Shown piece after piece: positions 12,117-26,597 of a stretch of DNA of 64,000 nt. Within the stretch, counting starts at the first letter, position 1. The number at the start of each line of letters is the position of its first letter. Made by a program: the position numbers and the translations under genes. The notes beneath the pieces were generated by a model. That model did no database searches and was not told where the DNA came from. It worked only from the letters and a program-made list of their open reading frames with translations. Source of the stretch: Clostridium algifaecis (GTDB taxonomy: Bacteria > Bacillota > Clostridia > Clostridiales > Clostridiaceae); NCBI RefSeq assembly GCF_017874415.1, contig NZ_JAGGLM010000015.1, forward strand, positions 1-64,000. Reading direction: 5' to 3'.

Positions 12117-13269
12117 CCCTCAATTCCTCCCTCACAATAATTTCTTCCTTTATATTAAGCCTGCTTAAAACTTCATCTTCTATTGCCGTTCCTTGGCAGG
12201 CATCTTTTCCATTTTTAATATAATTACTACATTGCCACACTATCTTTTTGCAATTTAATTTGCTATTCCAAGTTCTTCTCCTTAAAGTTGAGCCGCATTT
12301 ACTGCAGTAAAGCATTCCTGTTAGAGGATACCTCTTTGTGTACTTATCTGTATCTCCTGCAACATTACCTTTGGCTTCAGCTCTTCTTTTAATTTCTTCT
12401 TGAACTTGTTCCCACATCTCTCTTGAAATTATCGGAGAATGGTTATCTTCAATATAATAACTATCAATAACTCCTTTATTCCTTACTGAGCCTTTTTTCA
12501 AATGGTCTGGTGTGTAATATTTCTGAAGTATTGCATCTCCCTTGTACTTCTCATTCTTTAAAATTCCTAGGATTGTGGTATCGTGCCACCTTGCTCCTCC
12601 AATTGTAGGAACCCCTTCTGCATTTAATTCCTTTGCAATGGTAAAACCACCTTTACCACTTAGGTACTCATTAAAAATTCTTTTTACCACCTCAGCCTCT
12701 TTAGGATTTATAACTAAATCTCCATACTCATCCTTGTCATATCCTAAAAACCTTGTGGTATTAATTATTAGTTCCCCTTGTTCAAACTTTTTTCTTGCTC
12801 TCCATTTAAGATTATCGCTCACATTTTTACTTTCTTCCTGTGCAAATGAAGAGAGGACGGTAAGCATTAACTCACCGTCCCCTGACAAAGTATTTATATT
12901 TTCTTTTTCAAACCTAACTTCTACACCTATATCTTTCAGTTCCCTTACTATCTGTAGCATTATTGCTGTGTTTCTTGCAAATCTTGAGATTGACTTTGTT
13001 ATTATCAAATCTATATTTTTATTTCTACAAAGTTCTAACATCCTTTGAAACTCTGGTCTGTTTTCAGTAGTTCCTGTGACACCTCTATCTGCAAATACTC
13101 CTACATACTCATAGTCTGGATTATTTGATATGATATTTTCATAGTATTGTATTTGATTTTCTAGAGATTCTCCTTGCTTGTCATTATCAGTGGATACTCT
13201 AGCATAAGCACAAACTTTTTTCTTTACCTTTTGAACCTTTTGTATTGGCTCAATAATCCTTACACGCAT
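11980..13269 (-). CDS. Large serine recombinase (first of an overlapping pair)
   Basis: The 429-residue protein has the catalytic serine S26 in CAYARVSTDNDKQGES, the SRFARNT helix, the recombinase domain (RFLGYDKDEYGD, GILKNEKYKGDAILQKYY) and a zinc ribbon near residues 320-360 (CSKCGS, WQCSNYIKNGKDACQG). It lacks the long helical C-terminus of its partner and instead ends with a polar tail (GKKHYSYTSKGKQNQ) encoded in the overlap. A promoter with a dyad in its spacer lies at 13305-13333. Tandem recombinases with this tail are seen in other clostridial elements, so the overlap is probably natural rather than a frameshift. Confidence 0.9.
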   Translation of the reverse strand: MRVRIIEPIQKVQKVKKKVCAYARVSTDNDKQGESLENQIQYYENIISNNPDYEYVGVFADRGVTGTTENRPEFQRMLELCRNKNIDLIITKSISRFARNTAIMLQIVRELKDIGVEVRFEKENINTLSGDGELMLTVLSSFAQEESKNVSDNLKWRARKKFEQGELIINTTRFLGYDKDEYGDLVINPKEAEVVKRIFNEYLSGKGGFTIAKELNAEGVPTIGGARWHDTTILGILKNEKYKGDAILQKYYTPDHLKKGSVRNKGVIDSYYIEDNHSPIISREMWEQVQEEIKRRAEAKGNVAGDTDKYTKRYPLTGMLYCSKCGSTLRRRTWNSKLNCKKIVWQCSNYIKNGKDACQGTAIEDEVLSRLNIKEEIIVREELRDGKKHYSYTSKGKQNQFSTEPRTTEKEDGSLLQSINRPIRTVIKL

Positions 13270-13304
13270 TGATTTTACTCCTTTCTATCAAATTGTTACT
13301 ACTA

Positions 13305-13333
13305 TATATCACTCTGAAGGTGATAGAAGTCAA
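13305..13333 (-). promoter_or_regulatory. Promoter of the recombinase genes, with internal dyad
   Basis: On the minus strand TTGACT (13328-13333) and GATATA (13305-13310) are 17 bases apart. TATCAC and GTGATA form a dyad within this promoter. The segment AGAGTGATATAT and the following GTAACAA recur at the promoter at 17138-17166. The rest of 13270-13421 shows nothing else. Confidence 0.65.
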
Positions 13334-13421
13334 GCTATATAGAAGTGAAAGCGGCTACCCTAATTTTAGAGTAACGACTACTTATTAAATATCATAATTG
13401 TTGCATCAAATCTTGCTGCCT

Positions 13422-13712
13422 TTAAGATATTTTTAACTTTGAATATCTTTCTCTAATATCATCAATCAGCCGTTTTATTCCTTCTAAGTCTGGCTTAAGA
13501 TTCATATGTCTTTCTACAATTTCAAGCCTTTCTTTAGTCTGCCAGACATAAATATCAAATTTAGAGCGTACTGTTTTTCCGCCAGATATTTCAATGTCAT
13601 AACCATTCCTTATGTTTAAATAAATGTAATTTTCAAAATCAATAGTTTTTACTGTATATGGCTTTCCTAAATATTCTAATAATCTTTGTTTACCTTTTGA
13701 TATTTTTAACAT
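13422..13712 (-). CDS. Hypothetical protein of the mobile element (96 aa)
   Basis: I do not recognise this family. The protein is basic, begins MLKISKGKQRLLEYLGKPYT, has a beta-rich middle (YIYLNIRNGYDIEISGG) and a charged C-terminal helix (LEGIKRLIDDIRERYSKLK). GGGGAGGA lies 7 bases before the ATG, so it is probably translated. A TAGAGC/GCTCTA hairpin at about 13735-13755 lies immediately upstream. It follows the amidoligase and the broken cyclotransferase gene in the same direction and precedes the recombinases, so it belongs to the element's late-positioned genes. A role as a small DNA-binding or directionality factor is possible but unsupported. Confidence 0.6.
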   Translation of the reverse strand: MLKISKGKQRLLEYLGKPYTVKTIDFENYIYLNIRNGYDIEISGGKTVRSKFDIYVWQTKERLEIVERHMNLKPDLEGIKRLIDDIRERYSKLKIS

Positions 13713-13789
13713 TTCAAATCCTCCCCAAATTTAAATAGAGCCTTTGCAAGCTCTATATTTTTTAAACCTACTATCAATTCCTTAACAAG

Positions 13790-13916
13790 TTAAACTTCAT
13801 GTAAACCTTCCATTGCCTTATTAAGATGGGTTAATGATATACCCCAATCTTCATAGCCTTTAATTATAGTATTAAGATAAGCTTTTCTAGGCTCACCCCT
13901 TTCCTTATTAAAATGT
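13790..13916 (-). pseudogene. 3' part of a gamma-glutamylcyclotransferase (AIG2-like) gene cut by an IS
   Basis: The last 42 codons read HFNKERGEPRKAYLNTIIKG, YEDWGISLTHLNKAMEGLHE, V, stop. The Y-x(3)-I-x-x-G-Y-x-D-W-G-I pattern is the usual C-terminal end of small AIG2-like gamma-glutamylcyclotransferases, which the truncated gene at 15779-16085 lacks. The two parts lie on either side of the IS, on the same strand and in the right order. There is no start codon or ribosome binding site of its own. Confidence 0.85.
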
Positions 13917-14057
13917 GTTCGGAAACCCTTCAGGCCTCCACTTATCTTAATCCCGGAGGGTTATGTTATTTCACTTCCCCCCAGAATTTCAATTAAATTT
14001 GTATTAAACCCTTAAATTTTTTCCAAAAGCACTTGACAATAATAGGAAAATTTGCAG

Positions 14058-14096
14058 CCTCACAATATGGAATCTATTTCCAAAAATATTGTGAGG
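14058..14096 (+). promoter_or_regulatory. Leader hairpin that covers the transposase ribosome binding site
   Basis: CCTCACAATAT (14058-14068) and ATATTGTGAGG (14086-14096) form a perfect 11-base stem with a 17-base loop. The 3' arm contains the GTGAGG that serves as ribosome binding site 7 bases before the ATG at 14104. In the RNA the site would be sequestered, as in other IS elements that block translation from read-through transcripts. Confidence 0.7.
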
Positions 14097-14103
14097 TGTT
14101 TTT

Positions 14104-15615
14104 ATGTTAGGTAATTGGCGTAGCCATTCAGATTATCAAAGTTTTCTACTATCAAGTCTTATGGAAATTTATAAAATTAATCCCACTATCGTGGAATATT
14201 ACTCATCAAGTATAGATAAACTCTACAACCTAAATCTTGATGATATAAAGCCATTAATTAGTCCAAATTATTCTTTAACTGGCAAGCCTTCAAATCAACA
14301 ACCGGAACTTCTTAGGTCATTTATTCTAATGTCTGACCTAGGTTTTCATAGCCTTCCTAAATGGATAAAGCACTTACGTGCACATAACATACTTTGCACT
14401 ATTATAGGTGTTGAAAAATCAAGTGTGCCAGGTTTAGGAACTCATTATGACTTTATAACAAGATTTTGGGGCGTGAGCCCTGAGGCTGAAAAGAAAGCCT
14501 TGGACTCACTGCATCCTTTCACTTCCAAGCCCCACAAAAAACTTAGGAAAAATGAAAAACTGCCACCCAAACATCCTGGTGTTATTAAAAATTTAGTTGA
14601 ACAAGCTCTCAAGGGACGAACCATCGAAACCCGACCTGAAAAGCTGTTTCAACAAATTTTTGCTAAGTTAGCTGTTGAGCCATCCGCCAAACTCGGTCTC
14701 CTTGGTGATACTCATAAAATCGACATATCAGGAGATGGAACCTGTGTTGAAACAGGCGGTAGCTCATTAGGCATAAAGACCTGTGATTGCATTAAAAAAG
14801 GAACTTTCAATTGTAAATGCAATAGAAGATTCTCTGACCCTGACGCTAGACGCGGTTGGGACAGCTACCACGAAAAGTGGTACTACGGTCATTGCCTATA
14901 TTTTCTTAGTGTATATAACCCTAAACTTAAGAAGGATCTTCCTATATATTTTAGGATGGTACAAGCGCAGCGTTATGATGGCGTTACTGCAATATTTGCA
15001 TTATCAGAAGTTAAAAGGATGTATCCTTTATTCAACTTTGATAAGTTCATCGGAGATGCTGCTCATGATAACTATCCTACTTATAAGCTTCTTAATGAAT
15101 GGAATATAAAAGCAGTTATATCCCTTAATCCAAAAGGTGAAGGTAAAAATAAATATGAGCCACCAGTCGGATTTACTAAAGATGGAATACCTATCTGCAA
15201 ATGCAATCAACCAATGGTATATGATTGGTATGATAAAATCAGAAGCAGAATTAAGTATCGTTGCCCTTTAGTAAAAAAGAAAATTGAACAATGTCCCTAT
15301 AAAGATGAGTGTTCTCCGAGTGCCTACGGCCGTGTGGTATATGTTAAACCCAGTAATGATCTACGTCTATTTACTGCTATCCCTCGAAACACGGACATAT
15401 GGAAACAAATAATGAAAAAGAGAACTTCCTCTGAGCGAGTAAACAAAAGAATACTTGAAGATTACAATATGGAAGAAGCACACTGCCGTGGTAAAAAACG
15501 TTGGTCTTGGTGGACATTAATCCATAGTATCAATATTCATTTGGATGCCCAAAACTCAATTCTTAAAACTAACATATTGGACATTTTAGAATCAGCTATA
15601 AGTAAAGCAATCTAG
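14104..15615 (+). CDS. DDE transposase of the insertion sequence
   Basis: The 503-residue protein has the acidic motifs of a DDE transposase: a first D in HKIDISGDGTCVETGG, a second in NFDKFIGDAAHDNYPTYKLL, and a late glutamate in TSSERVNKRILEDYNMEEAH, which matches the YREK-like helix of IS4/IS1182-type enzymes. A cysteine-rich insertion (KTCDCIKKGTFNCKCNRRF) and a second cysteine cluster (CPLVKKKIEQCPYKDEC) look like zinc-binding parts. The gene is full length and uninterrupted, so the IS may still be active. Assignment to a particular IS family is uncertain. Confidence 0.9.
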   Translation: MLGNWRSHSDYQSFLLSSLMEIYKINPTIVEYYSSSIDKLYNLNLDDIKPLISPNYSLTGKPSNQQPELLRSFILMSDLGFHSLPKWIKHLRAHNILCTIIGVEKSSVPGLGTHYDFITRFWGVSPEAEKKALDSLHPFTSKPHKKLRKNEKLPPKHPGVIKNLVEQALKGRTIETRPEKLFQQIFAKLAVEPSAKLGLLGDTHKIDISGDGTCVETGGSSLGIKTCDCIKKGTFNCKCNRRFSDPDARRGWDSYHEKWYYGHCLYFLSVYNPKLKKDLPIYFRMVQAQRYDGVTAIFALSEVKRMYPLFNFDKFIGDAAHDNYPTYKLLNEWNIKAVISLNPKGEGKNKYEPPVGFTKDGIPICKCNQPMVYDWYDKIRSRIKYRCPLVKKKIEQCPYKDECSPSAYGRVVYVKPSNDLRLFTAIPRNTDIWKQIMKKRTSSERVNKRILEDYNMEEAHCRGKKRWSWWTLIHSINIHLDAQNSILKTNILDILESAISKAI

Positions 15616-15778
15616 CCTAGATAGTTATCATATTTCTTAAAAAATTCACCTATCGGTGGGTTAGCTTTGCTATGCCCATTTTAAACTGAAACTAAATAAA
15701 AAATACTAATTTAAGGTGTGCTCCGCACTAAAAACATGTAAAGTCATTTTTAGCTTTGCTGGAAACTAGTTTCCGAAC

Positions 15779-16085
15779 TCACTCTATTAACCATTACATA
15801 TACAAAGGCTTCGTAAACTTTTCCATTATCATCTTTTACCCTTACAAATATTTTAGTGTAAAGTCTAGGGTAGCCCTCATAAATATCTAACTTTTTAACA
15901 TCCCTTGGTGATACTTCATAAACAGCACCGTAAACTACTTCAGCATCAGCTTCAACAATATCAGCAACCCTGTTAAATACCAACTTATAGCCTTTCAATT
16001 TAACCTTTACTACAGGAACACAATCTGGACACCTTTTTGCCATTTGCTCTAGATTCAAATTACTCCCATAACTAAAATACAGAAT
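15779..16085 (-). pseudogene. 5' part of a gamma-glutamylcyclotransferase (AIG2-like) gene cut by an IS
   Basis: In frame from 16085 the sequence reads ILYFSYGSNLNLEQMAKRC, with the YGSN motif that binds the gamma-glutamyl group, then ADAEVVYGAVYEVSPRDVKK, where the second acidic motif of the fold occurs (LDIYEGYP follows). The reading frame crosses into the IS and ends at 15750 with nine foreign residues. No ATG, GTG or TTG precedes YGSN; only ATT (16083-16085) or CTG (16080-16082) could serve, after AGGAG at 16096-16100. The TTG at 16058 lies after the motif. The start may also be decayed. It lies downstream of the amidoligase gene, its usual partner. Confidence 0.8.
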
Positions 16086-16168
16086 TTTTTATCAGCTCCT
16101 TTTTATCCTTCTATTCATCACTCAAAAGCTAAAGATAATCAATCTTTAATTTTAAATAGCAGAAGGCT

Positions 16169-17089
16169 CTATTCTCCTGCTGCTATTCTCTCTGGTCTGC
16201 CATACCTAAAGGCAATATCACCCTCTAATTCTTTAAGTAGGTGGTATCTTGCTGTTTCAAACTCTTCTCCAATTAAGCCTAGCCTTAAAAGCCAAGTTCT
16301 AAAGGTGTATTTTGGATTTGAACTTTCAGTTTTCTTAGGACTTGCACTACTTTGATTTAAAGCTTGATTGCATATGGCTAGGCAAAGTTGTATATATGAT
16401 TTGATTTTTCCAGCGTGGGTACATGAATTTAGAAATCTCATTTCTACAGTGTTTCCATTAAAAAAACTATGTAAATTAAGACCTCTGTATCTGCTTGTAT
16501 TGTACTTTCTATGCCTGTCTTCCCCGAAATAATTTTCGTACCAAAGGTTTGCAAACTCCTCTAAGGTATCAGGTTTTCTTTTATTAAGCATGTTTAAAAA
16601 GTTCTTATCCACCTTCTTACAATACCTGCCTTCCCTTCTGCTCTCCACTTTTAAAGCTTTATAAATCAAATCCTCTTTACTTGCCATAATGTTTACTAAG
16701 TTTCTAAGGGTCTTTGCTGTGAAAGGGCTCTTATCAACATGTATATGAATACCGGTAGACTTATTTTCAAAGGCTCCTTCTTTTCTTAAAGCTCTAACTA
16801 TCTCCTGCACCGTTTCAATATCTTCATATTTGCAAATTGGAGAAACTACCTCAACTCTATACTTGTTATCTGCTTCAACTATTCCTTTGCCCTCTTTTCT
16901 TTGAGGATTTAAACTGGAGTCATTAACCACCTTCCAAATCCTATCCTCTGAATCCTTTATCTCAAAGCTATCATAAGCACCACCTACATATTTTGCTGCT
17001 ACTCCAAAATATGCTCCAATAGTTGTAGCTGCCTTTTCCCTTGTAACTCCTGTCAGTTCTATTTCAATACCAAAATTTAAGTCCTTCAA
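16169..17089 (-). CDS. Amidoligase (COOH-NH2 ligase) family enzyme
   Basis: The 306-residue protein matches the amidoligase_2 group of the glutamine synthetase/GCS superfamily: GIEIE at residues 7-11 (metal and ATP site), EVVSP near 80, the HxHxD motif THIHVD-type at 113-119 (H115, H117, D119) and RYRGLNLHSF plus VEMRFLNS near 200-222. These enzymes form amide or peptide bonds between amino and carboxyl groups using ATP. In mobile elements they are often next to AIG2-like cyclotransferases, and this is so here. The likely target is a cell-wall peptide or a protein, but it is unknown. A promoter like that of the recombinases lies 50-80 bases upstream. Confidence 0.85.
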   Translation of the reverse strand: MKDLNFGIEIELTGVTREKAATTIGAYFGVAAKYVGGAYDSFEIKDSEDRIWKVVNDSSLNPQRKEGKGIVEADNKYRVEVVSPICKYEDIETVQEIVRALRKEGAFENKSTGIHIHVDKSPFTAKTLRNLVNIMASKEDLIYKALKVESRREGRYCKKVDKNFLNMLNKRKPDTLEEFANLWYENYFGEDRHRKYNTSRYRGLNLHSFFNGNTVEMRFLNSCTHAGKIKSYIQLCLAICNQALNQSSASPKKTESSNPKYTFRTWLLRLGLIGEEFETARYHLLKELEGDIAFRYGRPERIAAGE

Positions 17090-17137
17090 TTCTAGAACCT
17101 CCTAAAGGCTTAAGCCTGTGTGTTTTTGTTACATACA

Positions 17138-17166
17138 TATATCACTCTAAAACACACATATATCAA
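17138..17166 (-). promoter_or_regulatory. Promoter of the amidoligase operon
   Basis: On the minus strand TTGATA (17161-17166) and GATATA (17138-17143) are 17 bases apart. The stretch from AGAGTGATATAT to GTAACAA is nearly the same as at the recombinase promoter (13305-13333), so both are probably controlled together. Confidence 0.6.
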
Positions 17167-17233
17167 GTTAACTCTGGATAATACGTAAATGTTTATTTAA
17201 CATAAAACCTAAATTGGAGCAAAAGAAAAACAC

Positions 17234-17674
17234 CTACTTTAAAGTGGTGCTACCAAACCTAAAATCAATGGAGCATTTAATAGAGCAATACTTTCTGTTT
17301 TTATTTCCGTAAGTTTTAAATTCTTTGCCACAGTTTTTGCATTTAAAGCTATACCAAGCGCTATCTCTTTTGTTTTTCTTGTCATCATTATTTTTCCACC
17401 AAGTCCTTCGACAAGTCTCACAGCAGAACTTAGGTTTTCTTCCTCGCTTGTCTTCTGTATTTAGTTCCTTGCCACAATTAAGGCAATTTTTAATTGTAGT
17501 TGATTCTTCTACTGTTTTATTATCAACAGGTTGTCCATAACCTACAAGTCCATGGCTCTTACATAGATTTCTTACGCTATCCCTTTTAATTTGAAGAATG
17601 CTTGCAATGCTTTTGTAGCCGTAGCCTTTTTTCCTTAGTTCTAAAATTTGCTGTTTTTGCTCTGTTTTTAGCAT
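17234..17674 (-). CDS. HTH protein with two C-terminal zinc-finger-like motifs
   Basis: The 146-residue protein starts with a helix-turn-helix (LELRKKGYGYKSIASILQIK, RDSVRNLCKSHGL) of the resolvase/sigma region 4 kind. Two cysteine clusters follow: CLNCGKEL with CCETCRRTWW at about residues 64-93, and CKNCGKEF with YCSIKCSIDFR near 112-137. Each could bind one zinc ion, like MYM or FCS fingers. It is likely a DNA-binding regulator of the element. It lies between the GC-rich block and the amidoligase operon on the same strand. Confidence 0.75.
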   Translation of the reverse strand: MLKTEQKQQILELRKKGYGYKSIASILQIKRDSVRNLCKSHGLVGYGQPVDNKTVEESTTIKNCLNCGKELNTEDKRGRKPKFCCETCRRTWWKNNDDKKNKRDSAWYSFKCKNCGKEFKTYGNKNRKYCSIKCSIDFRFGSTTLK

Positions 17675-17751
17675 GTTTTTTCACCTCTTTTTTATGGTCT
17701 AAGAGAGCCTAAGCCCTCTATTTTTAACACTTCACACTATCTCATAAAATT

Positions 17752-17848
17752 TACACTCCGGGGGCCTTGAAATATGCGTTTATTAGCATGAGGGCATCCG
17801 CCCGACGTAGCATCAAAAAGTTGTAGAGATTTCACCCCCCCTAGGGTC
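17752..17848. other. GC-rich structured non-coding block, possible packaging site or RNA
   Basis: In an otherwise AT-rich element, this stretch contains CCGGGGGCC (from 17757), ATGC/GCAT and GGGC/GCCC hairpins (17774-17789 and 17792-17803), and a run of Cs ending in the palindrome CCCTAGGG (17839-17846). It has no reading frame of note and sits between the YozE-like and HTH/zinc-finger genes. From memory it resembles the conserved GC-rich block, with ATCTCTACAA on the minus strand, found near HNH-terminase genes of Firmicute prophages, where cos sites lie. I cannot verify this resemblance. Confidence 0.45.
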
Positions 17849-17865
17849 TATAAGCAAAAGTTTAT

Positions 17866-18351
17866 TTAGATTTTATTCTTCTCAAAATGCTTCCAAGCCT
17901 TTTCAAAAGCTTTCATAGCACCAAGGCAGGCATGTTTACTATATAGATAATCTTTAATCTCAGTTTTGTCTATTGACTCCTTAGGAAACTCAGGAGCCTT
18001 TTCCATATCCCTAACAAAATCACCAAGGCTTGAATCGTTATATTTATAACGTCTTATACAAAATCTATAAAAGCTATTTGGTATTCTTTCCTTCATTTTA
18101 AAATGCCAGTTTTGTTCATTTTCATATATTGCAGTAAAGCCAGCCCTAATCATTGCGGCTTTAAACTGTCCGTTGTAAACATAAATGCCTGTTTCCCTTT
18201 CAAAATCATGCTTTAAGCCATAACTACTACCTTTGGCATAAGTCCTCTTTGACAACTGAAATTTCCCTTTTATCCATTTATCCAAAATTGCCTTATCCTT
18301 TTCTTCAAGCTCCTTATAAGATTCTGTTTGGTCATAATAATTTTTACACAT
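17866..18351 (-). CDS. YozE SAM-like domain protein of the mobile element
   Basis: The 161-residue protein has a C-terminal half like the YozE_SAM_like family: SFYRFCIRRYKYNDSSLGDF, then a FPKES segment and EIKDYLYSKHACLGAMKAFE with a final aromatic W-x-H-F. YozE-like domains are small helical bundles found in Firmicute phages and chromosomes. The N-terminal half (LSKRTYAKGSSYGLKHDFER, followed by TGIYVYNGQFKAAMIRAGF) is typical of phage-associated proteins and may be a separate DNA-binding domain. AAGGAG lies 10 bases before the ATG. It is immediately downstream of the iteron region and may take part in replication or regulation; its function is unknown. Confidence 0.7.
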   Translation of the reverse strand: MCKNYYDQTESYKELEEKDKAILDKWIKGKFQLSKRTYAKGSSYGLKHDFERETGIYVYNGQFKAAMIRAGFTAIYENEQNWHFKMKERIPNSFYRFCIRRYKYNDSSLGDFVRDMEKAPEFPKESIDKTEIKDYLYSKHACLGAMKAFEKAWKHFEKNKI

Positions 18352-18377
18352 AGCATCATCTCTCCTTTAAAATTTGA

Positions 18378-18718
18378 CCTAACCGTCCTAACCGTTTTTT
18401 TCCCCCACATACCTTCTATATATAGGGTAATATAATAAAGGTTTATTTTACTCTTTAAAATCATAGTCCCTACATGTATTGTATGTTTACGGTTATATGG
18501 TTATATGGTTAGGTTAATATATATTAGTATTAAAGAATATAGTAATATCAATACTTATAGCTACTTTGACTTTTTCCTTTACCCTAACCGTAACCGAACC
18601 GTCCTAACCGTAATTCCTATGTTTTTTAAATATTTTTATCTTATGCTTAAATTGACTCTTTGATTTTTAATGCCATAACCATTTTCACATCATCAACCTA
18701 ACCATTTTTTCGGTTAGG
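18378..18718. repeat. Iteron-like array of CTAACCG repeats, candidate replication origin
   Basis: At least ten copies of a (C/A)TAACC(G/A) unit occur in this gene-free stretch: two direct copies at 18378-18395; three inverted copies spaced exactly 8 bases apart at 18489-18512 (ACGGTTAT, ATGGTTAT, ATGGTTAG); a group at 18583-18610; one at 18676-18682; and an inverted pair at 18697-18718 that forms a CCTAACC/GGTTAGG hairpin 12 bases past the end of the replication protein gene. The DNA between the groups is AT-rich. Repeats of this kind beside a primase-helicase gene suggest the element's origin of replication. Confidence 0.65.
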
Positions 18719-18729
18719 GCAATACTCCT

Positions 18730-21396
18730 TCAGTTTAAAAAATCCATATCTACATCCACATTTTCACCCTTAGGTACTTTAACCACATATACTCTACAAT
18801 TTTTACCACAAATACTTTTAGTCATTTGTAATCTTAAAACTCCCTTATTATCCTTTTGACTCTCAATATATCCTCTTTCAGCAAATCCCCTAAATACCTT
18901 CTTTGGTGAAAAGCCGCTCTCCTCTAATGCCTTATGTGCAAAGGATGGAATAACAAGATAATTTTCATCAACATCTATTCTGCCATACCTAGGACTTGGA
19001 TTATCAAACTCAAACCTTTGGTTATTTGCTATAATCCACCCTGTTAACATCTCCCAAGCTCTTTCGATATTATCATTTTGTGTTAGCTGCTTATTATTTT
19101 CTATCATATCTGTTGCTGTTTTTATAGCATTCTCTCTAGCAGATACTTCATCTTCTCCAAATACATATATTGAAGATAGATAATCTCCAAGACACACCAC
19201 AGCAACCTCATCAATATGAATGCATTCTTGATATCTTTCTTTTAAGCTTACCCTTAACTCTTCATAAAGAGACTGTAGAAAGGTTTTATCCTTCTTTAGG
19301 TCAACACATAGCTTGTTTACAAATACTTCACCAGCAAAGCCATAATGTGCCTCTGACACCTCATGCATAAGGCTTGCAAATGCTATATCCTCCACAGGTT
19401 TTGCATATATTTCAAAGGTTCTAGTGCTTGCTCCATCTTGCATATTGCTGCTAAGTAGAGCCTCTTCTCCTGTGGTAATTATAATATTTCTCCAAGTGCG
19501 TATTTCTTGAATTCCTCCATCCTTATTGCCTCTAGTTCTTCCTTGCCCTTGTGAAAGCATATAGATAATGCTATCAGTAGTCATTCTTTTGGTATTTAAT
19601 ACTTGAAGCTCGTCTATGGCAAAGGGTAAATTCCTTAGTGCTGCTGCCATTCTCTCAAGTCCTACTATGGTGCTGTTAAAGGAACCTATAAGCTTATTTG
19701 GATTACCAAAGGCAGACATTGCAAGCTTTATTGTAGCTGTTTTCCCACTTCTACTACTATGCCATAGGTGAATGAAAAACACTCTTTTATGAAGTGGTTC
19801 TATAAGTACTGATGCAAAGCTTGAGGCAATAATAAATTTTGCAGCAGGGTTTCCCCTTGCTAATCTTGCAACCTCTAACCATTTATTAAAATCTCCGCTC
19901 TTTTCTAGTCCGCTCATTATGGTGGAAGCCTCTTTGCTATCATCTTCAAATTCTAATTTTTCAAAAGTACTATATGGAAAGAACTCATTATGCTTAAGCC
20001 ACCCTATCCTTGCAACTGATTTTACAATAGGAATAGTTTTAGCATTTTCCCTTTCAAAATCAGATATATAAGAAATTAAATCTCCTGCATTATTTGAGGA
20101 TACTGGAAAACTACTATCTGCAAGTCTAAGTATGCTGTTTCTATTAAATATAACTGACCTTGGTGCAAGTACATCTCTCCAATAGCCATCTCTAAAAAAA
20201 GCTAATTCTACCTTTTCAGTTTCTGTATCTAAATTATGAAATCTTCTACTTATAACAACTGGAGTAAAGCTTACTGGCACTGTCTTTATATTTCCTTCTG
20301 CACTCTGCTCACATTTAACGATACCGTCCTTAAAATCAACATTCCAACCAAATGGAACATTATAGCCTTTAGTATCTAATCCCTTAAGCTCTAATGGCTT
20401 TTTATTGTAAGCTTCTTTTTCACTGCGTTTAATGTGCTTTATACTCTTTTCTAAATCTCTAAAATTAACCTTACCCTTTAGCTTTGACTTAATTAATGCA
20501 TAAGTTGCAGGATCATTTTCTTTAACCATTGAAAGCTTTTCTAGCATTTCTTTTTCATAAACCTTTGAGATATCCTCTAAGCTAGAAATGATATCAAGCA
20601 AATCCTCACTCCTAAACTCCTCCCACTCCTCGCCTGTTATAGGGTCTTCAGGCCTATACTTGCAAATGCTCTTAGTAATAGTTTCAATCTCTTTATCATC
20701 AAGTGGTGGGTTGCATCTAGTATTATTTTCAACTAGTAGTGCTGCTAAAATAGCTTCAAAGCTTAATCCCTTTCTCCTTAAAGCTCCTGCCATACTTGCC
20801 ATCACTGCATTTCTTGAGCCTTCTTCTATAACATCTGGAATCTCCTTAAAGCTAGTTCTTTTCTTTAGAATTAAATCTATAAGCCATTCATCTGGTGCAG
20901 CCATTTCAATATCATCTATCCACTCATAATAATTACCACTTTTATGAATGCTCCCAGGAGCTACAACAAGACCACCATTCGCCCTAATATCTACACCTTT
21001 AAGTATTCCCACCTTATTAGGAATGGTTACTCCTTCTGGCATTAGGTAGTAGTGATGGCTTCCACCACTACCTGTTCTAACACTTAAAGTTCTGTTAAGA
21101 TTTCCATACTCCTTTAAGCTTTCATATCCACCATTGTCTATATCAAGTACAAAATAATTATCACCAGTAGCAAAACCTATATTGGCATAAGGATGCTTCT
21201 TAAACTCTGTTATGATTTCTTCTTCAGAGGTAGTTGCTTTTTTCACCCAGCTATTATAGATTGGATGTTTACCGCTACTTTTGCAATTAGCACCCTTACT
21301 ACAAGTACAATTACCAGCTTCATTAATTCCATTAAGCATAACTATCTTAAACCCTCTTTTGGAATAGCTTACTGCTAGACTCGCTCTATCTATCAA
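18730..21396 (-). CDS. PrimPol-DUF927 replication protein (primase-polymerase fused to helicase-like ATPase)
   Basis: The 888-residue protein begins with a bifunctional primase/polymerase domain: FVLDIDN (about 82-88, catalytic acidic pair), GGSHHYYLMP (about 111-120) and VDIRANGGLVVAPGS. A PriCT-1-like segment follows (GSRNAVMASMAGALRRKGLS and NPPLDDKEIETITKSICKY). Residues about 350-700 are a DUF927 ATPase with a Walker A-like HSSRSGKT near 548 and Walker B LPFAIDELQ near 594. It probably primes and unwinds the element's DNA at the adjacent iteron region. It is intact, which implies that the island replicated after excision in the recent past. Confidence 0.85.
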   Translation of the reverse strand: MIDRASLAVSYSKRGFKIVMLNGINEAGNCTCSKGANCKSSGKHPIYNSWVKKATTSEEEIITEFKKHPYANIGFATGDNYFVLDIDNGGYESLKEYGNLNRTLSVRTGSGGSHHYYLMPEGVTIPNKVGILKGVDIRANGGLVVAPGSIHKSGNYYEWIDDIEMAAPDEWLIDLILKKRTSFKEIPDVIEEGSRNAVMASMAGALRRKGLSFEAILAALLVENNTRCNPPLDDKEIETITKSICKYRPEDPITGEEWEEFRSEDLLDIISSLEDISKVYEKEMLEKLSMVKENDPATYALIKSKLKGKVNFRDLEKSIKHIKRSEKEAYNKKPLELKGLDTKGYNVPFGWNVDFKDGIVKCEQSAEGNIKTVPVSFTPVVISRRFHNLDTETEKVELAFFRDGYWRDVLAPRSVIFNRNSILRLADSSFPVSSNNAGDLISYISDFERENAKTIPIVKSVARIGWLKHNEFFPYSTFEKLEFEDDSKEASTIMSGLEKSGDFNKWLEVARLARGNPAAKFIIASSFASVLIEPLHKRVFFIHLWHSSRSGKTATIKLAMSAFGNPNKLIGSFNSTIVGLERMAAALRNLPFAIDELQVLNTKRMTTDSIIYMLSQGQGRTRGNKDGGIQEIRTWRNIIITTGEEALLSSNMQDGASTRTFEIYAKPVEDIAFASLMHEVSEAHYGFAGEVFVNKLCVDLKKDKTFLQSLYEELRVSLKERYQECIHIDEVAVVCLGDYLSSIYVFGEDEVSARENAIKTATDMIENNKQLTQNDNIERAWEMLTGWIIANNQRFEFDNPSPRYGRIDVDENYLVIPSFAHKALEESGFSPKKVFRGFAERGYIESQKDNKGVLRLQMTKSICGKNCRVYVVKVPKGENVDVDMDFLN

Positions 21397-21427
21397 ATCC
21401 TCACATCCTTTCCTATCTTAATTGATG

Positions 21428-21673
21428 CTATTCTTCAAACCATGGTGACTCTGTAATTTTAATATCTTCTGATACATAGGTAACTAGATTTCCATATTCA
21501 CAAAGGCTATAAATGTATTCTGTATCACAGCCTGTGTTTTCTATAAGACCTTCTACAGAAGCAATAACCTCTGCATCTTCACACTTAGCAAGTATCTTTA
21601 ATTGCTCCATAATTCTTGCAATTATAGTTTCTGCTCCGTATTCATTTATAAGTTCATTCAAATTTTTAGCCAT
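21428..21673 (-). CDS. Small acidic hypothetical protein (81 aa)
   Basis: I do not recognise a family. The protein is acidic and mostly helical (LNELINEYGAETIIARIMEQ), with three cysteines, and ends ESPWFEE. GGAGGAA lies 8 bases upstream of the ATG. It precedes the PrimPol gene by 31 bases on the same strand and is probably expressed from the cro-side promoter. Similar small proteins occur in the early regions of Firmicute phages. Confidence 0.6.
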   Translation of the reverse strand: MAKNLNELINEYGAETIIARIMEQLKILAKCEDAEVIASVEGLIENTGCDTEYIYSLCEYGNLVTYVSEDIKITESPWFEE

Positions 21674-21717
21674 TTATAAATTCCTCCTTAATTTTTTGTA
21701 TTAAAAAAGCACCCGCA

Positions 21718-21930
21718 TTAAAGTGCTTGCATATTTCTTCTATCCTTTTTTACTGACATTTTCCCTAAGCTTAATTTAGAGCTGCTTGTAATAACTCTTC
21801 CTTTAGATGCACCAAAGGCTACAAGGTCTACTCTGCCAAAATCATCCTTAGCTGAAACATCTCCAAATAGATCTCTTCTCTCCTGCATAAGCCTATACTG
21901 CTTATACTTTCTGCTTACATTTCCAGACAT
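21718..21930 (-). CDS. Small basic hypothetical protein (70 aa)
   Basis: I do not recognise a family. The sequence is basic and polar (MSGNVSRKYKQYRLMQERRD, ending VKKDRRNMQAL), probably disordered or nucleic-acid-binding. It lies between the cro-like gene and the 81-residue gene, all on the minus strand. The upstream ribosome binding site (GGAGATGATAAC) is acceptable. About 120 bases upstream of it (21931-22048) hold no gene. Confidence 0.5.
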   Translation of the reverse strand: MSGNVSRKYKQYRLMQERRDLFGDVSAKDDFGRVDLVAFGASKGRVITSSSKLSLGKMSVKKDRRNMQAL

Positions 21931-22041
21931 GTTATCATCTCCGTAAAATTTATTTTTGCACTACATCGGTTTCACCAGATTTCTTCCGATCAGGTTTTAA
22001 GTACTTTGCCGAATCACCTTAAACTTGTGCTATTCAGTTTT

Positions 22042-22056
22042 ATTGCGTTTACGTAA
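22042..22056. promoter_or_regulatory. Operator-like copy at the 3' end of the cro-like gene
   Basis: ATTGCGTTTACGTAA is identical to the operator at 22282-22296 but overlaps the last codons and stop of the cro-like gene. It could be an auxiliary site for looping or a roadblock. Confidence 0.55.
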
Positions 22057-22258
22057 GTTGTTTATCAAAAAAAATATCTTTTACATCTTTGATATTCAAG
22101 CATTCACAAAGCTTACATATTTCGCTTCTGTTAAACTCACTTTTCCCATTTATCTTGCGATATAGTGTAACCTTGTTTATAGCAAGCATATTTGCTATAT
22201 CAGACATTGATTTCCCAGACATAATAATCTGAGCCATAAACTTATTTCTATTAAACAT
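22049..22258 (-). CDS. Cro-like small HTH protein
   Basis: The 69-residue protein is a single helix-turn-helix domain of the XRE/Cro kind: AQIIMSGKSMSDIANMLAIN followed by VTLYRKINGKSEFNRSEICK and LCECLNI. It resembles the short DUF739-like regulators of Gram-positive phages. AAGGAGGAG lies about 6 bases before the ATG. It is divergent to the larger repressor gene at 22430, and the 171 bases between them carry repeated operators, so it is in the Cro position of a lysogeny switch and first gene of the replication operon. Confidence 0.8.
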   Translation of the reverse strand: MFNRNKFMAQIIMSGKSMSDIANMLAINKVTLYRKINGKSEFNRSEICKLCECLNIKDVKDIFFDKQLT

Positions 22259-22281
22259 CTTAACTCCTCCTTGTTACTCTA

Positions 22282-22398
22282 ATTGCGTTTACGTAATTAT
22301 ATTTTAATACTTATTTTAGCCTAAGTCAATACGTAAACGCAATTATAATAGCTATATTGCATAATTTTATTGCAAATACGCAATTTATCTGCTATAGT
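22282..22398. promoter_or_regulatory. Divergent promoter/operator region of the cro/cI switch
   Basis: Three operator-like sites are visible: ATTGCGTTTACGTAA at 22282-22296, the same sequence inverted at 22329-22343, and the variant ATTGCAAATACGCAAT at 22369-22384. The rightward promoter is TTGCAA (22370-22375), 17 bases, TATAGT (22393-22398), and overlaps the third site. The leftward one is TTGACT (22324-22329), 17 bases, TAAAAT (22301-22306), flanked by the first two sites. Binding would thus block either promoter, as in lambda-type switches. Confidence 0.75.
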
Positions 22399-22429
22399 AT
22401 AGTTAAAATACTCATTAGAAGGTGATAAA

Positions 22430-22858
22430 GTGGATTTTAAGGATAAAGTTAAAACTAGAAGGCTAGAACTTGGGCTAACTTTAGAAGATGTAGCTAAAGC
22501 AGTTGGTGTTACTGCTCCTACTATACTACGATACGAAAGTGGTAATATTAAAAATGTTAGAAAAGATAAAATTAAAGCATTAGCTGATGCATTACAAGTT
22601 TCTCCATCTTATTTAATGGATTGGGAAAACAGCGATGATTTTAATAGTAGTTTTAACTATTTTATGAAAATGCAAATGCTTCTTTTAGGATATAAAATCA
22701 TTTTTGATGATGAAGATGGTTATATTATTCTTAAAGGAAAAGAAGGTGAGTTTGAAATCTCTGAATCTGATATTGATAGTTTAAGCAACGATTTAGAGTC
22801 TTTTTTAAATTTTAAGATATATGAGTTAATGAAGAACTCTAGAAAATTCGGTAAATAG
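22430..22858 (+). CDS. CI-like XRE-family repressor
   Basis: The 142-residue protein starts with GTG after AGAAGGTGAT. Residues 5-62 are a classic XRE helix-turn-helix (VKTRRLELGLTLEDVAKAVG, VTAPTILRYESGNIKNVRKD, and LQVSPSYLMDWE). The C-terminal half (YKIIFDDEDGYIILKGKEGE) is short and has no S24 autocleavage serine-lysine pair, so RecA-induced self-cleavage as in LexA/CI is not expected. Induction may rely on another factor such as a helper phage protein or a metalloprotease. It is divergent from the cro-like gene. Confidence 0.85.
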   Translation: MDFKDKVKTRRLELGLTLEDVAKAVGVTAPTILRYESGNIKNVRKDKIKALADALQVSPSYLMDWENSDDFNSSFNYFMKMQMLLLGYKIIFDDEDGYIILKGKEGEFEISESDIDSLSNDLESFLNFKIYELMKNSRKFGK

Positions 22859-22874
22859 AAACACTCTTTCCTTT

Positions 22875-23120
22875 AATTTCAAAAGTAGCAATGCTAACTG
22901 CGGTAAATATTTTGTACCACTGCGCAGCTCCGATGCTGAAAAACTAAGAAGGAGCATTTACCAAACACTACAAATGCGTGTCAGAAGAAATCCTGAGGAT
23001 GAAAATCACAAGGACTATTTTGAAAGGTAGAAAAAAGATGTTGCCAAATGGAAGAAAGATATTAAAAAAGGCAAGAAAACCACTGAAGAGTTTGTCCAGT
23101 GGCTGCTTAAGAGTAAGTAG
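22875..23120 (+). pseudogene. Remnant of a DUF6076-like zinc-binding phage-associated protein
   Basis: One frame from 22875 to 23120 reads NCGKYFVPLRSSDAEKLRRS, then NPEDENHKDYFER, a TAG at 23028-23030 where tryptophan is expected, and KKDVAKWKKDIKKGKKTTEE, FVQWLLKSK, stop. The CGKYFVP start and the TxEEFxxWL end look like DUF6076-type proteins, which are common in Firmicute islands; the family name is from memory. Its N-terminal part and start are missing and one nonsense codon is present, so it is dead. Confidence 0.65.
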
Positions 23121-23150
23121 AAATGAATCTATAAACTTCACTTTAACTGT

Positions 23151-23190
23151 AAAAATAGAGAGATTCTTTCACAATTCTCTCTATTTTTCT
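23151..23190. terminator. Bidirectional terminator between the element and the RhuM gene
   Basis: AAAAATAGAGAGA (23151-23163) and TCTCTCTATTTTT (23176-23188) are perfect 13-base arms with T-runs in both directions. It lies between converging genes and would stop both the repressor-side transcript and the RhuM transcript. Confidence 0.85.
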
Positions 23191-23209
23191 TAATTATCAA
23201 TATTTTGTA

Positions 23210-24247
23210 TTACTTGTTTCTACCACCTTTTAAATACCTTTCAAACTCTTTATCAAAATCCGATATATATAGTTTATCTTGCTTAATTCTAAACTTCTCA
23301 TACTCTTCATGAGCCTTTGCAACTGCCATATCGTGAGATATTATGCCTGAATTTTCTAGTATTTCTTGATCAGAAAAAGCTAAAAATTTATTTACATGAA
23401 TAAGCCAATCTTCCATAGTCATAATTTGCTGATTTAAAGCCCTAAGCTCCGCAAAATCTATGAATAAAGTAACAAGCCTATTTAGCTTATCTATCTCTTT
23501 TTCATTTAAATAATTTTTTGCAATTGTTGTATCGCTTTTTAAAACCTTTCCTTTAGGAGCATTTTTCCATGTAGTTAATCCCATATAAGGCATATCACTA
23601 TCTGCTCTATTATAAATAATTTCAGCTGCAGTTTGGCCCGTAGTAGCAAAATGTAATTTATTTTGCACAGTTTTATAAAACAACTTTGTTTCTTTAGAAT
23701 TTGAACTATAATCACTGCTACATTGTTCAAAAACATCCGCTATCTTTTGATAAGCTCTACGCTCGCTAGCTCTTATTTCTCGTATTTTTTCTAATAATTC
23801 ATCAAAGTAATCTTTTCCAAATGGTTTCCCATTTTTAAGCATTTTATCATTTAAAACAAAACCTTTAGTTATGTATTGATTTAGTGTATTTGTTGCCCAT
23901 TTTCTAAACTGCGTTGCCTGTTTTGAATTCACTCTATATCCAACTGAAATAGTTGCATCAAGATTATAAAACTTCACACTTCTATTAACACTTCTATTTC
24001 CTTCTTTTTGAACTATCCGAAATTCTCGGATAGTTGACTCCATATGTAGTTCTTCAGTTTCATAAATATTTTTCAAATGGTCATTTATAGTTCTAACATC
24101 TACATTGAAAAGCTTTGCCATTGATTTTTGTGAAAGCCAAAATGTTTCATCAGCAAAATACACATCTACTGTGACAGTTTCCTCTTCATTTGAGTAAAAT
24201 ATAATTTTTTCCTCTTGAATAATCATGTTATTTTTATCTATATTCAT
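23210..24247 (-). CDS. RhuM family protein, candidate toxin partner of an AbiEi antitoxin
   Basis: The 345-residue protein matches the virulence RhuM family along its length: a helix-turn-helix in TFWLSQKSMAKLFNVDVRTI, the FYNLDATISVGYRVNSKQAT motif, FRKWATNTLNQYITKGFVLN, and KLHFATTGQTAAEIIYNRAD. RhuM proteins are widespread in genomic islands and their biochemical activity is not known to me. Its start overlaps the upstream AbiEi-type gene by one base (TAATG), indicating translational coupling typical of toxin-antitoxin pairs. In standard AbiE systems the second gene is the AbiEii nucleotidyltransferase; there is none here. Confidence 0.85.
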   Translation of the reverse strand: MNIDKNNMIIQEEKIIFYSNEEETVTVDVYFADETFWLSQKSMAKLFNVDVRTINDHLKNIYETEELHMESTIREFRIVQKEGNRSVNRSVKFYNLDATISVGYRVNSKQATQFRKWATNTLNQYITKGFVLNDKMLKNGKPFGKDYFDELLEKIREIRASERRAYQKIADVFEQCSSDYSSNSKETKLFYKTVQNKLHFATTGQTAAEIIYNRADSDMPYMGLTTWKNAPKGKVLKSDTTIAKNYLNEKEIDKLNRLVTLFIDFAELRALNQQIMTMEDWLIHVNKFLAFSDQEILENSGIISHDMAVAKAHEEYEKFRIKQDKLYISDFDKEFERYLKGGRNK

Positions 24248-24840
24248 TATAGCAACACCTCCATATATTTCTTAAGTATTTCATTAACCCTAAACACTTT
24301 TGCATACTCAAAAAGCTTATTAAAATCAGTAGTTTTTAACCTAACGTAATCCTTTAAAGCTTGAGTAACTATTTGAATATCTATTCTTTCTCTGCTTCTT
24401 AAAATATCACAAATAGTTCTTTCAACATCATATACTTTGATTTCATTTCCAAAAGAAGTCTTAGCTGTAACAACCCCTAATAGATGTAATTCTCTTTTTA
24501 TGTAGTAAATCTTATTATTATCACTAACATTTTGAGGAGCTTTATAACCACTTGGCACAGTAACAGCATACTCAAAAGGAGTTCTATCAGTAAGCTCATG
24601 AATAAATAAAGCTGTTTCATGTGAATAGATAAGCTTTGGGTACTTTGCTTGCATATAAAACATTTCATCCTCTATCTCACCAACTGCAACATATACACCT
24701 CTTTTAACTCTTTCTATTTTTCCCATATCCATTAACTTGGTTAAGTATATCCTAGGAATATTAAATTTATCTAAATCGGAGGTTACTATCGTTCCATTGT
24801 TTTCCTTAATCAAATCTTCTAATTTCTTTATATAATCCAT
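24247..24840 (-). CDS. AbiEi-type (type IV) antitoxin, winged-helix domain protein
   Basis: The 197-residue protein has an N-terminal winged helix (LIKENNGTIVTSDLDKFNIP, with RVKRGVYV) and an AbiEi-like C-terminal part (YPKLIYSHETALFIHELTDR, AVTVPSGYK, VYDVERTICDILRSRERID). AbiEi antitoxins repress their own promoter and counter AbiEii. I start at the third in-frame ATG (24840), which has AAAGGA 8 bases upstream; the two ATGs at 24846-24849 are too close to it. The promoter carries a 13-base inverted repeat well suited to autoregulation. Confidence 0.85.
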   Translation of the reverse strand: MDYIKKLEDLIKENNGTIVTSDLDKFNIPRIYLTKLMDMGKIERVKRGVYVAVGEIEDEMFYMQAKYPKLIYSHETALFIHELTDRTPFEYAVTVPSGYKAPQNVSDNNKIYYIKRELHLLGVVTAKTSFGNEIKVYDVERTICDILRSRERIDIQIVTQALKDYVRLKTTDFNKLFEYAKVFRVNEILKKYMEVLL

Positions 24841-24851
24841 TCTCATCATCC

Positions 24852-24897
24852 TTTACAAATATACTTATATTGTATTTTATATACGTATATTTGTAAA
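24852..24897 (-). promoter_or_regulatory. Promoter and inverted-repeat operator of the AbiEi-RhuM pair
   Basis: TTTACAAATATAC (24852-24864) and GTATATTTGTAAA (24885-24897) are perfect 13-base arms separated by 20 bases. On the minus strand the first arm contains TTTACA as -35 box and, 17 bases on, TACAAT as -10 box; the second arm begins near the transcription start. A bound dimer of dimers would close the promoter. 24898-25050 shows no gene. Confidence 0.75.
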
Positions 24898-25050
24898 CAC
24901 TTATTTTTGAGATACATTTAAGTATCGGAGAAATCCTCGGCAACTGATAATTTAGCTTTTGGTATTTTGTATTCTTACCGCAAATCTCCATACCATTTCG
25001 TAAATATCCAATTACTCCTAATTTAGCGAATTTGTACAACCCCTTAACAC

Positions 25051-25082
25051 AAAAATTCCCTCAAACCACAAGTCTGAGGGAA
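25051..25082 (-). terminator. Terminator of rlmD
   Basis: TTCCCTCA (25056-25063) and TGAGGGAA (25075-25082) form an 8-base stem with a short inner loop. On the minus strand it is followed by TTTTT. It lies 24 bases after the rlmD stop. Confidence 0.85.
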
Positions 25083-25106
25083 CATAAAACACACCTTAAT
25101 ATTTAC

Positions 25107-26537
25107 TTAAATTCCTTCAAAACCTTTGATATCAGCCAATTTCTTCTCTATCTTCACGACACACTCAACATGAGCTGTCTGGCTGAACATATCAACAGGC
25201 TGAACACATTCTGTTTTATATCCAAGTTCTTCTAAAATGTTAAGATCTCTGGCGAGGGTGCCAGGATCACAAGATACATATATTATTTTTGATGGAGCCA
25301 TTTTAGCAATTGATATTAAAAGCTCCTTGTCACAGCCCTTTCTAGGTGGATCTACCACAACTACATCTGCCTTTATTCCTTTATCTATAAGTTCTGGTAT
25401 AACAACTTCTGATTTTCCAACTATAAACTCTGTATTGTCTACTCCATTCTCTATAGCATTAACTTTAGCATTTTCTATAGCCTGGGCAATTACTTCAACA
25501 CCATATACTTTTTTCGCACTTTGCGATAAAAATAAAGATATAGTTCCGGTTCCACAATACGCATCAAATACAATTTCATTTCCAGTCAAATCTGCATATT
25601 CCATAACTTTTTTATACAATATTTCAGTTTGTACAGGATTTACCTGAAAAAATGATAAAGGCGCTATATTAAACTTAAACTTACCAATATAATCATTTAT
25701 AGTACCGCTGCCCCATAAAGTTATGCATTTTTGTCCCAATATTACGTTTGTATTTTTATTATTTATATTTTGTATTATACTTTTTACTCCATTTACATTT
25801 TCAACTACTGATTTTATAAGCTCCGACTTAAATGGTAATTTTGAAGATGAGGTTACAATAACAAGCATTACCTCTCCAGTAGAAAAAGCCTTTCTAATCA
25901 TAATATGTCTTAATGTGCCGACTTTATTTTTTTCATCATATATATCGATATCATATTTATTTATCCACTGCCTTACAATTTTAATAATTTCATCTGCAGT
26001 TTCATTTTGTATATAGCAGGAATCCGTATCTATAATTTGATGACTTCTCCTGGCATAAAAGCCCATAGCCACACCATTTTTACTTTTTCCAACTGGAAGT
26101 TGAACTTTATTTCTATATCTATAAGGTTTCTCCATACCTATTGTGTCATACAACTTTACTTTGCCGCTTTTATTGTCTAAGTCTTCGTTTTCCTCTACTT
26201 GAAGTTTTCCAATTCTCTCAAGACAATCTTTTACTCTATTTTTTTTAAAGTCAAGCTGATATTCATATGACATATGTTGAAGCTGGCATCCCCCACATCT
26301 TTTATAAATATTACATGACGGATCTTTTCTATATTTTGATGTTTCAATTATATCCATTAATTTTCCAAAAGCAAAATTTTTGTTTACTTTTATAATCTTC
26401 ACTCTTACTTTTTCATTAATTATAGCGCCGGGCACAAATACAGTAAATCCATTTACCTTACCCACACCCTCTCCTTCATATCCCTGACTATTAATAGTCA
26501 TAATATATTCTTTATTCTTTTCAACTATATCATTCAC
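25107..26537 (-). CDS. rlmD: 23S rRNA (uracil-1939-C5)-methyltransferase RlmD-type
   Basis: This RNA m5U methyltransferase has an N-terminal TRAM domain ([20 protein letters not shown]), an Fe-S cysteine set ([15 protein letters not shown]) that also includes the first cysteine, a SAM site ([20 protein letters not shown]), the [11 protein letters not shown] motif and the catalytic cysteine in [14 protein letters not shown] start it at a GTG (26537) preceded by AGGTGAG; an ATG upstream at 26585 would lie inside a terminator hairpin. That gives 476 residues, close to the normal length. Bacteria of this group often have one or two such genes, so the exact target uridine (747 or 1939) is less certain. 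Confidence 0.9.
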
Positions 26538-26572
26538 AATCTCACCTACTATAAAATTATTATTTATTGTCC

Positions 26573-26597
26573 AAAAAAATAGCACCTGTTAAGGTGC
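26573..26597 (-). terminator. Hairpin with T-run just upstream of rlmD
   Basis: GCACC and GGTGC (26582-26597) pair around TGTTAA, and on the minus strand ATTTTTTT follows. It lies 36 bases before the rlmD GTG and about 175 bases after pyk, so it may be a second pyk terminator or a leader attenuator of rlmD. Confidence 0.65.

What the first reader, a model, noticed from the sequence alone, without database searches (positions are those of the whole stretch)
23210..24897. AbiEi-type antitoxin coupled to RhuM instead of AbiEii
The sequence shows a winged-helix AbiEi-like gene whose stop overlaps the start of a RhuM gene by one base, behind a promoter embraced by perfect 13-base inverted arms. 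AbiEi is known to repress its own promoter through inverted repeats and to pair with the AbiEii nucleotidyltransferase. No such enzyme is encoded here; RhuM takes its place. RhuM is abundant in genomic islands but I know of no settled activity. The pair could be a toxin-antitoxin or anti-phage module with a new effector.
Basis: partly seen in the sequence, partly recalled or inferred. Interest (0 to 1): 0.75.

Follow-up and report, generated by a model that had tools for sequence, protein, structure and literature searches.

The report
Toxin-antitoxin operon with swapped second gene
A bacterial gene pair that normally makes a growth-stopping enzyme and its controller has kept the controller but carries a different, poorly understood defence-associated gene in the enzyme's place; the swap looks like a one-off rather than a widespread new system.

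Summary
The anatomy reported is real. An intact AbiEi gene (24247-24849, minus) overlaps an intact RhuM gene (23210-24247, minus) by one base (TAATG), and the promoter-like site lies in a 19-nt inverted repeat (outer 13 bases perfect). The control region comes from an ordinary AbiE operon: close AbiEi relatives carry nearly the same repeat, and the last AbiEi codons carry GGAGGT, as at 22 of 33 other AbiEi junctions. AbiEii was not found anywhere in the genome. RhuM sits where AbiEii belongs.

A conserved AbiEi-RhuM module is not supported. Of 78 AbiEi loci, 65 have AbiEii next; only the window has RhuM next on the same strand. Of 253 other RhuM loci (231 distinct proteins), none has AbiEi directly upstream. 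In G174 RhuM also abuts an AbiEi that lacks AbiEii, but convergently. RhuM is often operon-coupled, most often to methyltransferase genes, and a toxin role in R-M loci was proposed in 2013.

Best reading: a chimeric AbiE operon in which AbiEi still represses the promoter and so controls RhuM. Toxicity of RhuM and neutralisation by AbiEi are undemonstrated.

The parts
24247..24849 (-). AbiEi-type antitoxin/repressor gene, 200 aa, intact
   Evidence: closest solved chains 9hlo (AbiGI) E 3.2e-37 and 6y8q E 3.9e-37; keeps all 13 positions invariant, and all 16 at least 90% conserved, among 28 other AbiEi rows
23210..24247 (-). RhuM-family gene, 345 aa, intact, in the place of AbiEii
   Evidence: keeps all 63 positions invariant among 54 other RhuM rows and departs at 3 of 63 that are at least 90% conserved
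24247..24247 (-). one-base stop/start overlap TAATG
   Evidence: sequence
24256..24262 (-). Shine-Dalgarno-like GGAGGTG inside the last AbiEi codons, 8 nt before the RhuM ATG
   Evidence: GGAGGT lies in the last 33 nt of AbiEi at 22 of 33 other junctions
24852..24870 (.). arm of the AbiEi operator-like inverted repeat nearer the gene
24879..24897 (.). arm of the AbiEi operator-like inverted repeat farther from the gene
24869..24897 (-). promoter-like site TTTACA-17-TACAAT inside the repeat
   Evidence: consensus match only
24246..24275 (-). possible second, extended -10 promoter-like site at the gene junction (TTAAGA-18-TATAAT preceded by TG); would weaken strict operon control if real
   Evidence: 15 sites found in the region against 11.9 expected (sd 3.7), so may be chance
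23151..23188 (-). terminator-like hairpin after RhuM, AU-rich, with the U-run inside the stem
   Evidence: -15.4 kcal/mol, z -2.69, 1 of 200 shuffles as good; not listed by the terminator scan

Best explanation
This is an AbiE (type IV toxin-antitoxin) operon whose second gene, abiEii, has been replaced at the stop codon of abiEi by a rhuM gene. AbiEi most likely still binds its inverted repeat, which covers the promoter, and represses the operon, so RhuM is made under AbiEi's autoregulation and translated from the ribosome-binding site that used to serve AbiEii. RhuM is a defence-associated, probably DNA-binding protein (winged-helix-like N-terminal module, helical C-terminal domain) that elsewhere stands alone or rides in restriction-modification operons; here it is cargo of an SCC-like mobile element. 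Shown: gene content, overlap, repeat, ribosome-binding site, no AbiEii found in the genome, no other adjacent same-strand pair in the sample. Inferred: the replacement event, repression of RhuM by AbiEi, and RhuM's role in defence. Not shown: that RhuM is toxic or that AbiEi neutralises it.
For: AbiEi nests in a 10-member clade (support 0.984; low support inside it) in which 6 have AbiEii next, 3 have no partner and 1 is the window. The half-site TTACAAATATACTTATA recurs exactly in L034, and nearly so in L033, L035, L036, L037 and L038. The last AbiEi codons carry GGAGGT, as at 22 of 33 other junctions; L057 and L061 also have a one-base TAATG overlap. PF08843 was not found in the genome, which has one AbiEi and one RhuM match. 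In S. agalactiae full-length AbiEi, C-terminal domain included, is needed for repression through such a repeat (11-N27-11 there, 13-N20-13 here), and abiEi overlaps abiEii by 4 nt (PMC3985639, passages), so an intact AbiEi is expected if repression is what is kept. RhuM couples readily to upstream genes: 40 of 132 distinct full-length loci have a same-strand ORF ending within 20 nt.
Against: A promoter-like site overlaps the gene junction, so RhuM may be transcribed independently. There is only one instance, so selection for the arrangement cannot be shown. AbiEi genes without AbiEii also persist with no partner (L035, L037), so an intact AbiEi does not prove that it acts on RhuM. The repeat of the relative L033 (score 12.0) does not exceed its own shuffles (maximum 13.5). 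DNA binding was not tested.
Confidence: 0.6

Rival explanations
1. Passive cargo turnover: abiEii was lost when RhuM landed in the element; AbiEi is an orphan and RhuM works on its own, with no functional link.
For: In G174 AbiEii is also missing downstream of AbiEi and RhuM abuts it (9 nt between the two genes) but convergently, where AbiEi cannot head its operon. Near RhuM relatives in Clostridia (L097, L122) are not among the loci printed with an upstream gene within 100 nt. A promoter-like site lies at the junction. AbiEi without AbiEii is not rare in this clade.
Against: The join is exact to the ribosome-binding site and stop codon, and the repeat and both reading frames are intact.
Confidence: 0.25
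2. A true toxin-antitoxin or anti-phage pair: RhuM is a toxin and AbiEi its antitoxin.
For: Position and coupling match AbiE. RhuM was proposed as a toxin of R-M loci (PMC3710099, passages). RhuM's N-terminal module is joined to a Fic domain in 5 of 6 proteins that I picked for matching RhuM only over that module, so the RhuM C-terminal domain stands where a known toxin domain can stand. RhuM is PADLOC candidate PDC-S05.
Against: No second adjacent same-strand pair in 253 other RhuM loci or 77 other AbiEi loci. The RhuM genes sampled live almost without exception without AbiEi nearby, so RhuM needs no AbiEi beside it to be tolerated. In M. tuberculosis the antitoxin TakA (Rv1044, an AbiEi homologue) phosphorylates a serine in the active site of its nucleotidyltransferase toxin (PMC7205606, passages), a mechanism that should not carry over to an unrelated protein.
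Confidence: 0.12

Closest known systems
AbiE type IV toxin-antitoxin system (AbiEi-AbiEii; the AbiEi relative AbiGI of AbiG is a solved chain)
   Same: AbiEi gene, promoter-like site inside an inverted repeat, overlapping two-gene layout, ribosome-binding site in the last AbiEi codons
   Different: no AbiEii nucleotidyltransferase found in the operon or the genome; RhuM stands in its place
RhuM genes inside restriction-modification operons
   Same: RhuM tightly coupled behind a defence gene
   Different: the partner here is a repressor/antitoxin, not a methyltransferase; none of the 18 window ORFs scanned by Pfam reaches the cut-off of an R-M family
PADLOC candidate defence system PDC-S05
   Same: RhuM matches its profile at E 1.1e-149
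   Different: a candidate only; the one passage naming it that I read (PMC12988326) reports a tree, no activity
RhuM-Fic fusion proteins
   Same: same N-terminal module (RhuM residues 13-138)
   Different: the C-terminal domain here is RhuM's own, with no detectable relation to Fic

Membership tests
AbiE type IV toxin-antitoxin system | AbiEi-family antitoxin with wHTH and C-terminal domain | tested here: met
AbiE type IV toxin-antitoxin system | AbiEii (PF08843) nucleotidyltransferase toxin | tested here: not met
   no match in the genome at E<=0.1; the same search rings in 4 of 14 control genomes; nothing near the pair by tblastn
AbiE type IV toxin-antitoxin system | overlapping two-gene layout and promoter within inverted repeats | tested here: met
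   by sequence only:
AbiE type IV toxin-antitoxin system | antitoxin neutralises the toxin | not testable with these tools
   needs expression assays
RhuM family (PF13310) | match over the gathering score, conserved residues kept | tested here: met
   361.2 bits against 33.7; 63 of 63 invariant positions kept
PADLOC PDC-S05 (candidate defence) | profile match | tested here: met
PADLOC PDC-S05 (candidate defence) | protects against phage | not testable with these tools
   needs phage plating
Fic/Doc toxins | Fic domain | tested here: not met
   no Fic match in Pfam at E<=1; hhalign of RhuM residues 139-345 against six RhuM-Fic C-termini: probability 0.1% (few sequences)
DdrC-like DNA-binding fold | winged-helix N-terminal domain as in DdrC | tested here: inconclusive

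The most novel reading that the evidence does not exclude
AbiEi with its operator and built-in ribosome-binding site acts as a transplantable control head whose effector can be swapped in place: here the AbiEii enzyme for RhuM, a DNA-binding (perhaps DdrC-like, damage- or end-sensing) effector, giving a repressor-controlled defence gene that is released when AbiEi is lost or titrated during infection.
Probability: 0.15. Interest if true: 0.7.

Novelty: new variant of a known kind. Interest (0 to 1): 0.36.

Why it matters
If AbiEi really governs RhuM here, this operon gives a clean handle on a very common gene of unsettled function: remove or titrate AbiEi and see what RhuM does. It would also show how a defence operon can change its effector while keeping its control region. 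As a conserved new toxin-antitoxin family it does not stand on the evidence gathered.

Tried and rejected
Conserved AbiEi-RhuM module: rejected after searches from both sides. Compared by hand from the two printed tables of the same 391 class genomes, AbiEi and RhuM lie within 2 kb in four genomes besides the window's: G174 (convergent, 9 nt apart), G302 (divergent; 100 nt between the ORFs, 376 between the matches), G338 (same strand, RhuM 1.4 kb downstream, an ORF on the other strand between) and G248 (RhuM split over two ORFs, followed by short AbiEi and AbiEii ORFs). The RhuM table was cut at its end, so weak matches could be missed. Of 54 of 398 phylum genomes with RhuM at E<=1e-30, the 51 not already covered were searched for AbiEi: 24 have it, none within 10 kb of a listed RhuM match. 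Plasmid and phage hit lists were not cross-checked for pairs beyond the six regions fetched.

AbiEii hidden or decayed near the pair, or elsewhere in the genome: not found. RhuM C-terminal domain as a divergent Fic: no support. No solved structure of a RhuM relative was found by sequence (the few hits have E 0.045 or worse and look unrelated). No Fic chain is among the 50 rows listed, which does not exclude one. The first AbiEi scan of viral contigs with a single protein found nothing; the alignment scan gave 42 loci. A direct repeat marking the ends of the mobile element was sought between 24850-25200 and 6000-14000; the best is 13 nt, not convincing. DdrC literature: one paper listed, not opened.

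Rows dropped before counts: loci 32-65, 1 and 6 (AbiEi-derived or the window itself), identical proteins and RhuM ORFs of 250 aa or less. Of 51 upstream ORFs within 100 nt, 48 went to Pfam (L026, L086, L087 left out); of 61 downstream ORFs, 55. In one search loci 1, 6, 32-65, 190 and 191 were left out; of the 253 loci kept 243 have at least 300 nt upstream of the RhuM ORF and 231 RhuM proteins are distinct. In 'next' means the same strand with a gap between -60 and 400 nt; L055 and L339 were added to the AbiEii count by hand because their long ORFs overlap AbiEi beyond that limit; the 78 loci include some near-duplicates. ORFs were called mechanically throughout.

Full report
What is there. 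The window holds an AbiEi gene (24247-24849, minus, 200 aa) followed by a RhuM gene (23210-24247, minus, 345 aa); stop and start share one base. AbiEi matches PF13338 (E 1.5e-8), PADLOC AbiEi (E 4.3e-73) and the solved chains 9hlo (AbiGI) and 6y8q. RhuM matches PF13310 (E 3.3e-108) and PADLOC PDC-S05 (E 1.1e-149). Counted against the other rows only, RhuM keeps all 63 positions invariant in 54 relatives and AbiEi all 13 invariant in 28 relatives. The promoter-like hexamers lie inside a 19-nt inverted repeat with an 8-nt gap. A hairpin follows RhuM.

The control region is inherited from AbiE. The closest AbiEi relatives (57-70% identity) carry nearly the same inverted repeat, beginning 46-62 nt before the start codon used (L036 reads -146 because its ORF starts late); L034 shares the half-site TTACAAATATACTTATA exactly. 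Scores exceed the shuffles for L034-L038 and L062 but not for L033 (12.0 against 13.5). The AbiEi C-terminus ends MEVLL or a variant, so its codons can carry a ribosome-binding site for the next gene: GGAGGT is present at 22 of 33 other junctions. In the window GGAGGTG lies 8 nt before the RhuM ATG. The published S. agalactiae abiE promoter has similar geometry, a perfect 11-bp repeat spaced by 27 bp, with repression by full-length AbiEi and a 4-nt overlap of the two genes (PMC3985639, passages).

The second gene has been exchanged. Of 78 AbiEi loci, 65 have AbiEii next (63 by script, 2 by hand), 1 is the window with RhuM, 1 is cut by a contig end, 1 (G174) has a convergent RhuM, and 10 have no recognised partner. 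In the 10-member clade around the window's AbiEi (support 0.984, low inside) 6 have AbiEii, 3 have none and 1 is the window, so loss of AbiEii is not rare here. No AbiEii was found in the window's genome at E<=0.1.

No conserved pair. None of 253 other RhuM loci (231 distinct proteins; 243 with at least 300 nt upstream) has AbiEi directly upstream on the same strand; three have an AbiEi somewhere in the locus: G174 (convergent, 9 nt), G302 (divergent, 100 nt) and a viral contig (about 1.3 kb downstream). In 148 genomes of the first relatives search RhuM occurs in 22, the window's own included; tblastn with this AbiEi over the 31 loci fetched by then hit only the two copies of the window locus. 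In 391 class genomes AbiEi occurs in 108 and RhuM in 97, own genome included; four other genomes have the two within 2 kb, only G174 abutting. In 398 phylum genomes RhuM occurs in 54 at E<=1e-30; of the 51 not covered before, 24 have AbiEi, none near a listed RhuM. In G174 the AbiEi stop is followed by what looks like the first codons of AbiEii (inferred by comparison with L052 and L058) and then by RhuM in the opposite orientation. So RhuM can take this spot without becoming AbiEi's operon partner, which speaks against a required functional pair.

What RhuM does elsewhere. Of 132 distinct full-length RhuM loci, 40 have a same-strand ORF ending within 20 nt upstream and 11 more within 100 nt. 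Of 48 of these 51 ORFs, 14 match N6_Mtase, 6 N6_N4_Mtase and 1 AbiTii; AbiEi is not among the 25 families listed of 33. PADLOC profiles of type I and type III methyltransferases are the commonest matches. Of 55 of 61 downstream ORFs, 11 match Methylase_S, 6 ResIII and 7 Recombinase. RhuM in R-M loci and a toxin role were proposed in 2013 (PMC3710099, passages). Six proteins that match RhuM only over residues 13-138 were picked; five carry a Fic domain behind that module and one shows no Fic match.

Setting. The pair lies near one edge of what looks like a mobile element: two overlapping large serine recombinases (10704-13269), a transposase-like ORF (14104-15615), an amidoligase (16169-17089) and a Prim-Pol/DUF927 protein with a Cch helix-turn-helix domain (18730-21396), next to the 3' end of an RlmCD-like RNA methyltransferase gene (25107-26585; named from recall). 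In 12 genus relatives the ORFs after that gene match nothing in the window at 1e-5 except two recombinase pieces (L347, L348), which suggests an integration hot spot. Likeness to SCC elements is a recalled comparison.

Literature. Only asked for both names: two held papers contain 'RhuM' and 'AbiEi'; in one they occur only in a gene list (passages), the other (PMC11376236) was seen only in the listing. The listings show no paper on such a pair. PMC7319586 was seen as abstract and outline, PMC7205606 as passages, PMC12629846 and PMC12988326 as single passages.

Conclusion. The most likely mechanism is AbiEi autorepression extended to RhuM. A toxin-antitoxin relation between AbiEi and RhuM has no comparative support, and the arrangement is a singleton in what was searched here.

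Noticed in passing
window 10704-25100: SCC-like element: two overlapping large serine recombinases, a Cch-type Prim-Pol/DUF927 protein, an amidoligase and a transposase-like ORF, beside an RlmCD-like gene; in the genus the sequence after that gene varies and twice holds a recombinase piece.
   Followed up: partly
L353, L354, L356, L357, L358: RhuM's N-terminal module (residues 13-138) is fused to a Fic domain instead of the RhuM C-terminal domain.
   Followed up: partly
L333 3884-6681 (similar viral contigs L334-L336): An AbiEi-like gene overlaps a 159-aa ORF without Pfam match, followed by an ORF that reads like a type I methyltransferase (HsdM, by eye): another AbiEi not followed by AbiEii.
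   Followed up: no
L132 6008-8161: RhuM is followed by a 717-aa serine recombinase fused to a SpoVT C-terminal domain; 7 of 55 downstream ORFs match SpoVT_C and 7 match Recombinase.
   Followed up: no
L056 (G174:C95) 455-2053: A second place where AbiEii is missing and RhuM abuts AbiEi, but convergently, with 9 nt between the genes.
   Followed up: yes
window 23210-24247 (model): The five best Foldseek matches of the RhuM model are all DdrC, a DNA-damage response protein.
   Followed up: partly
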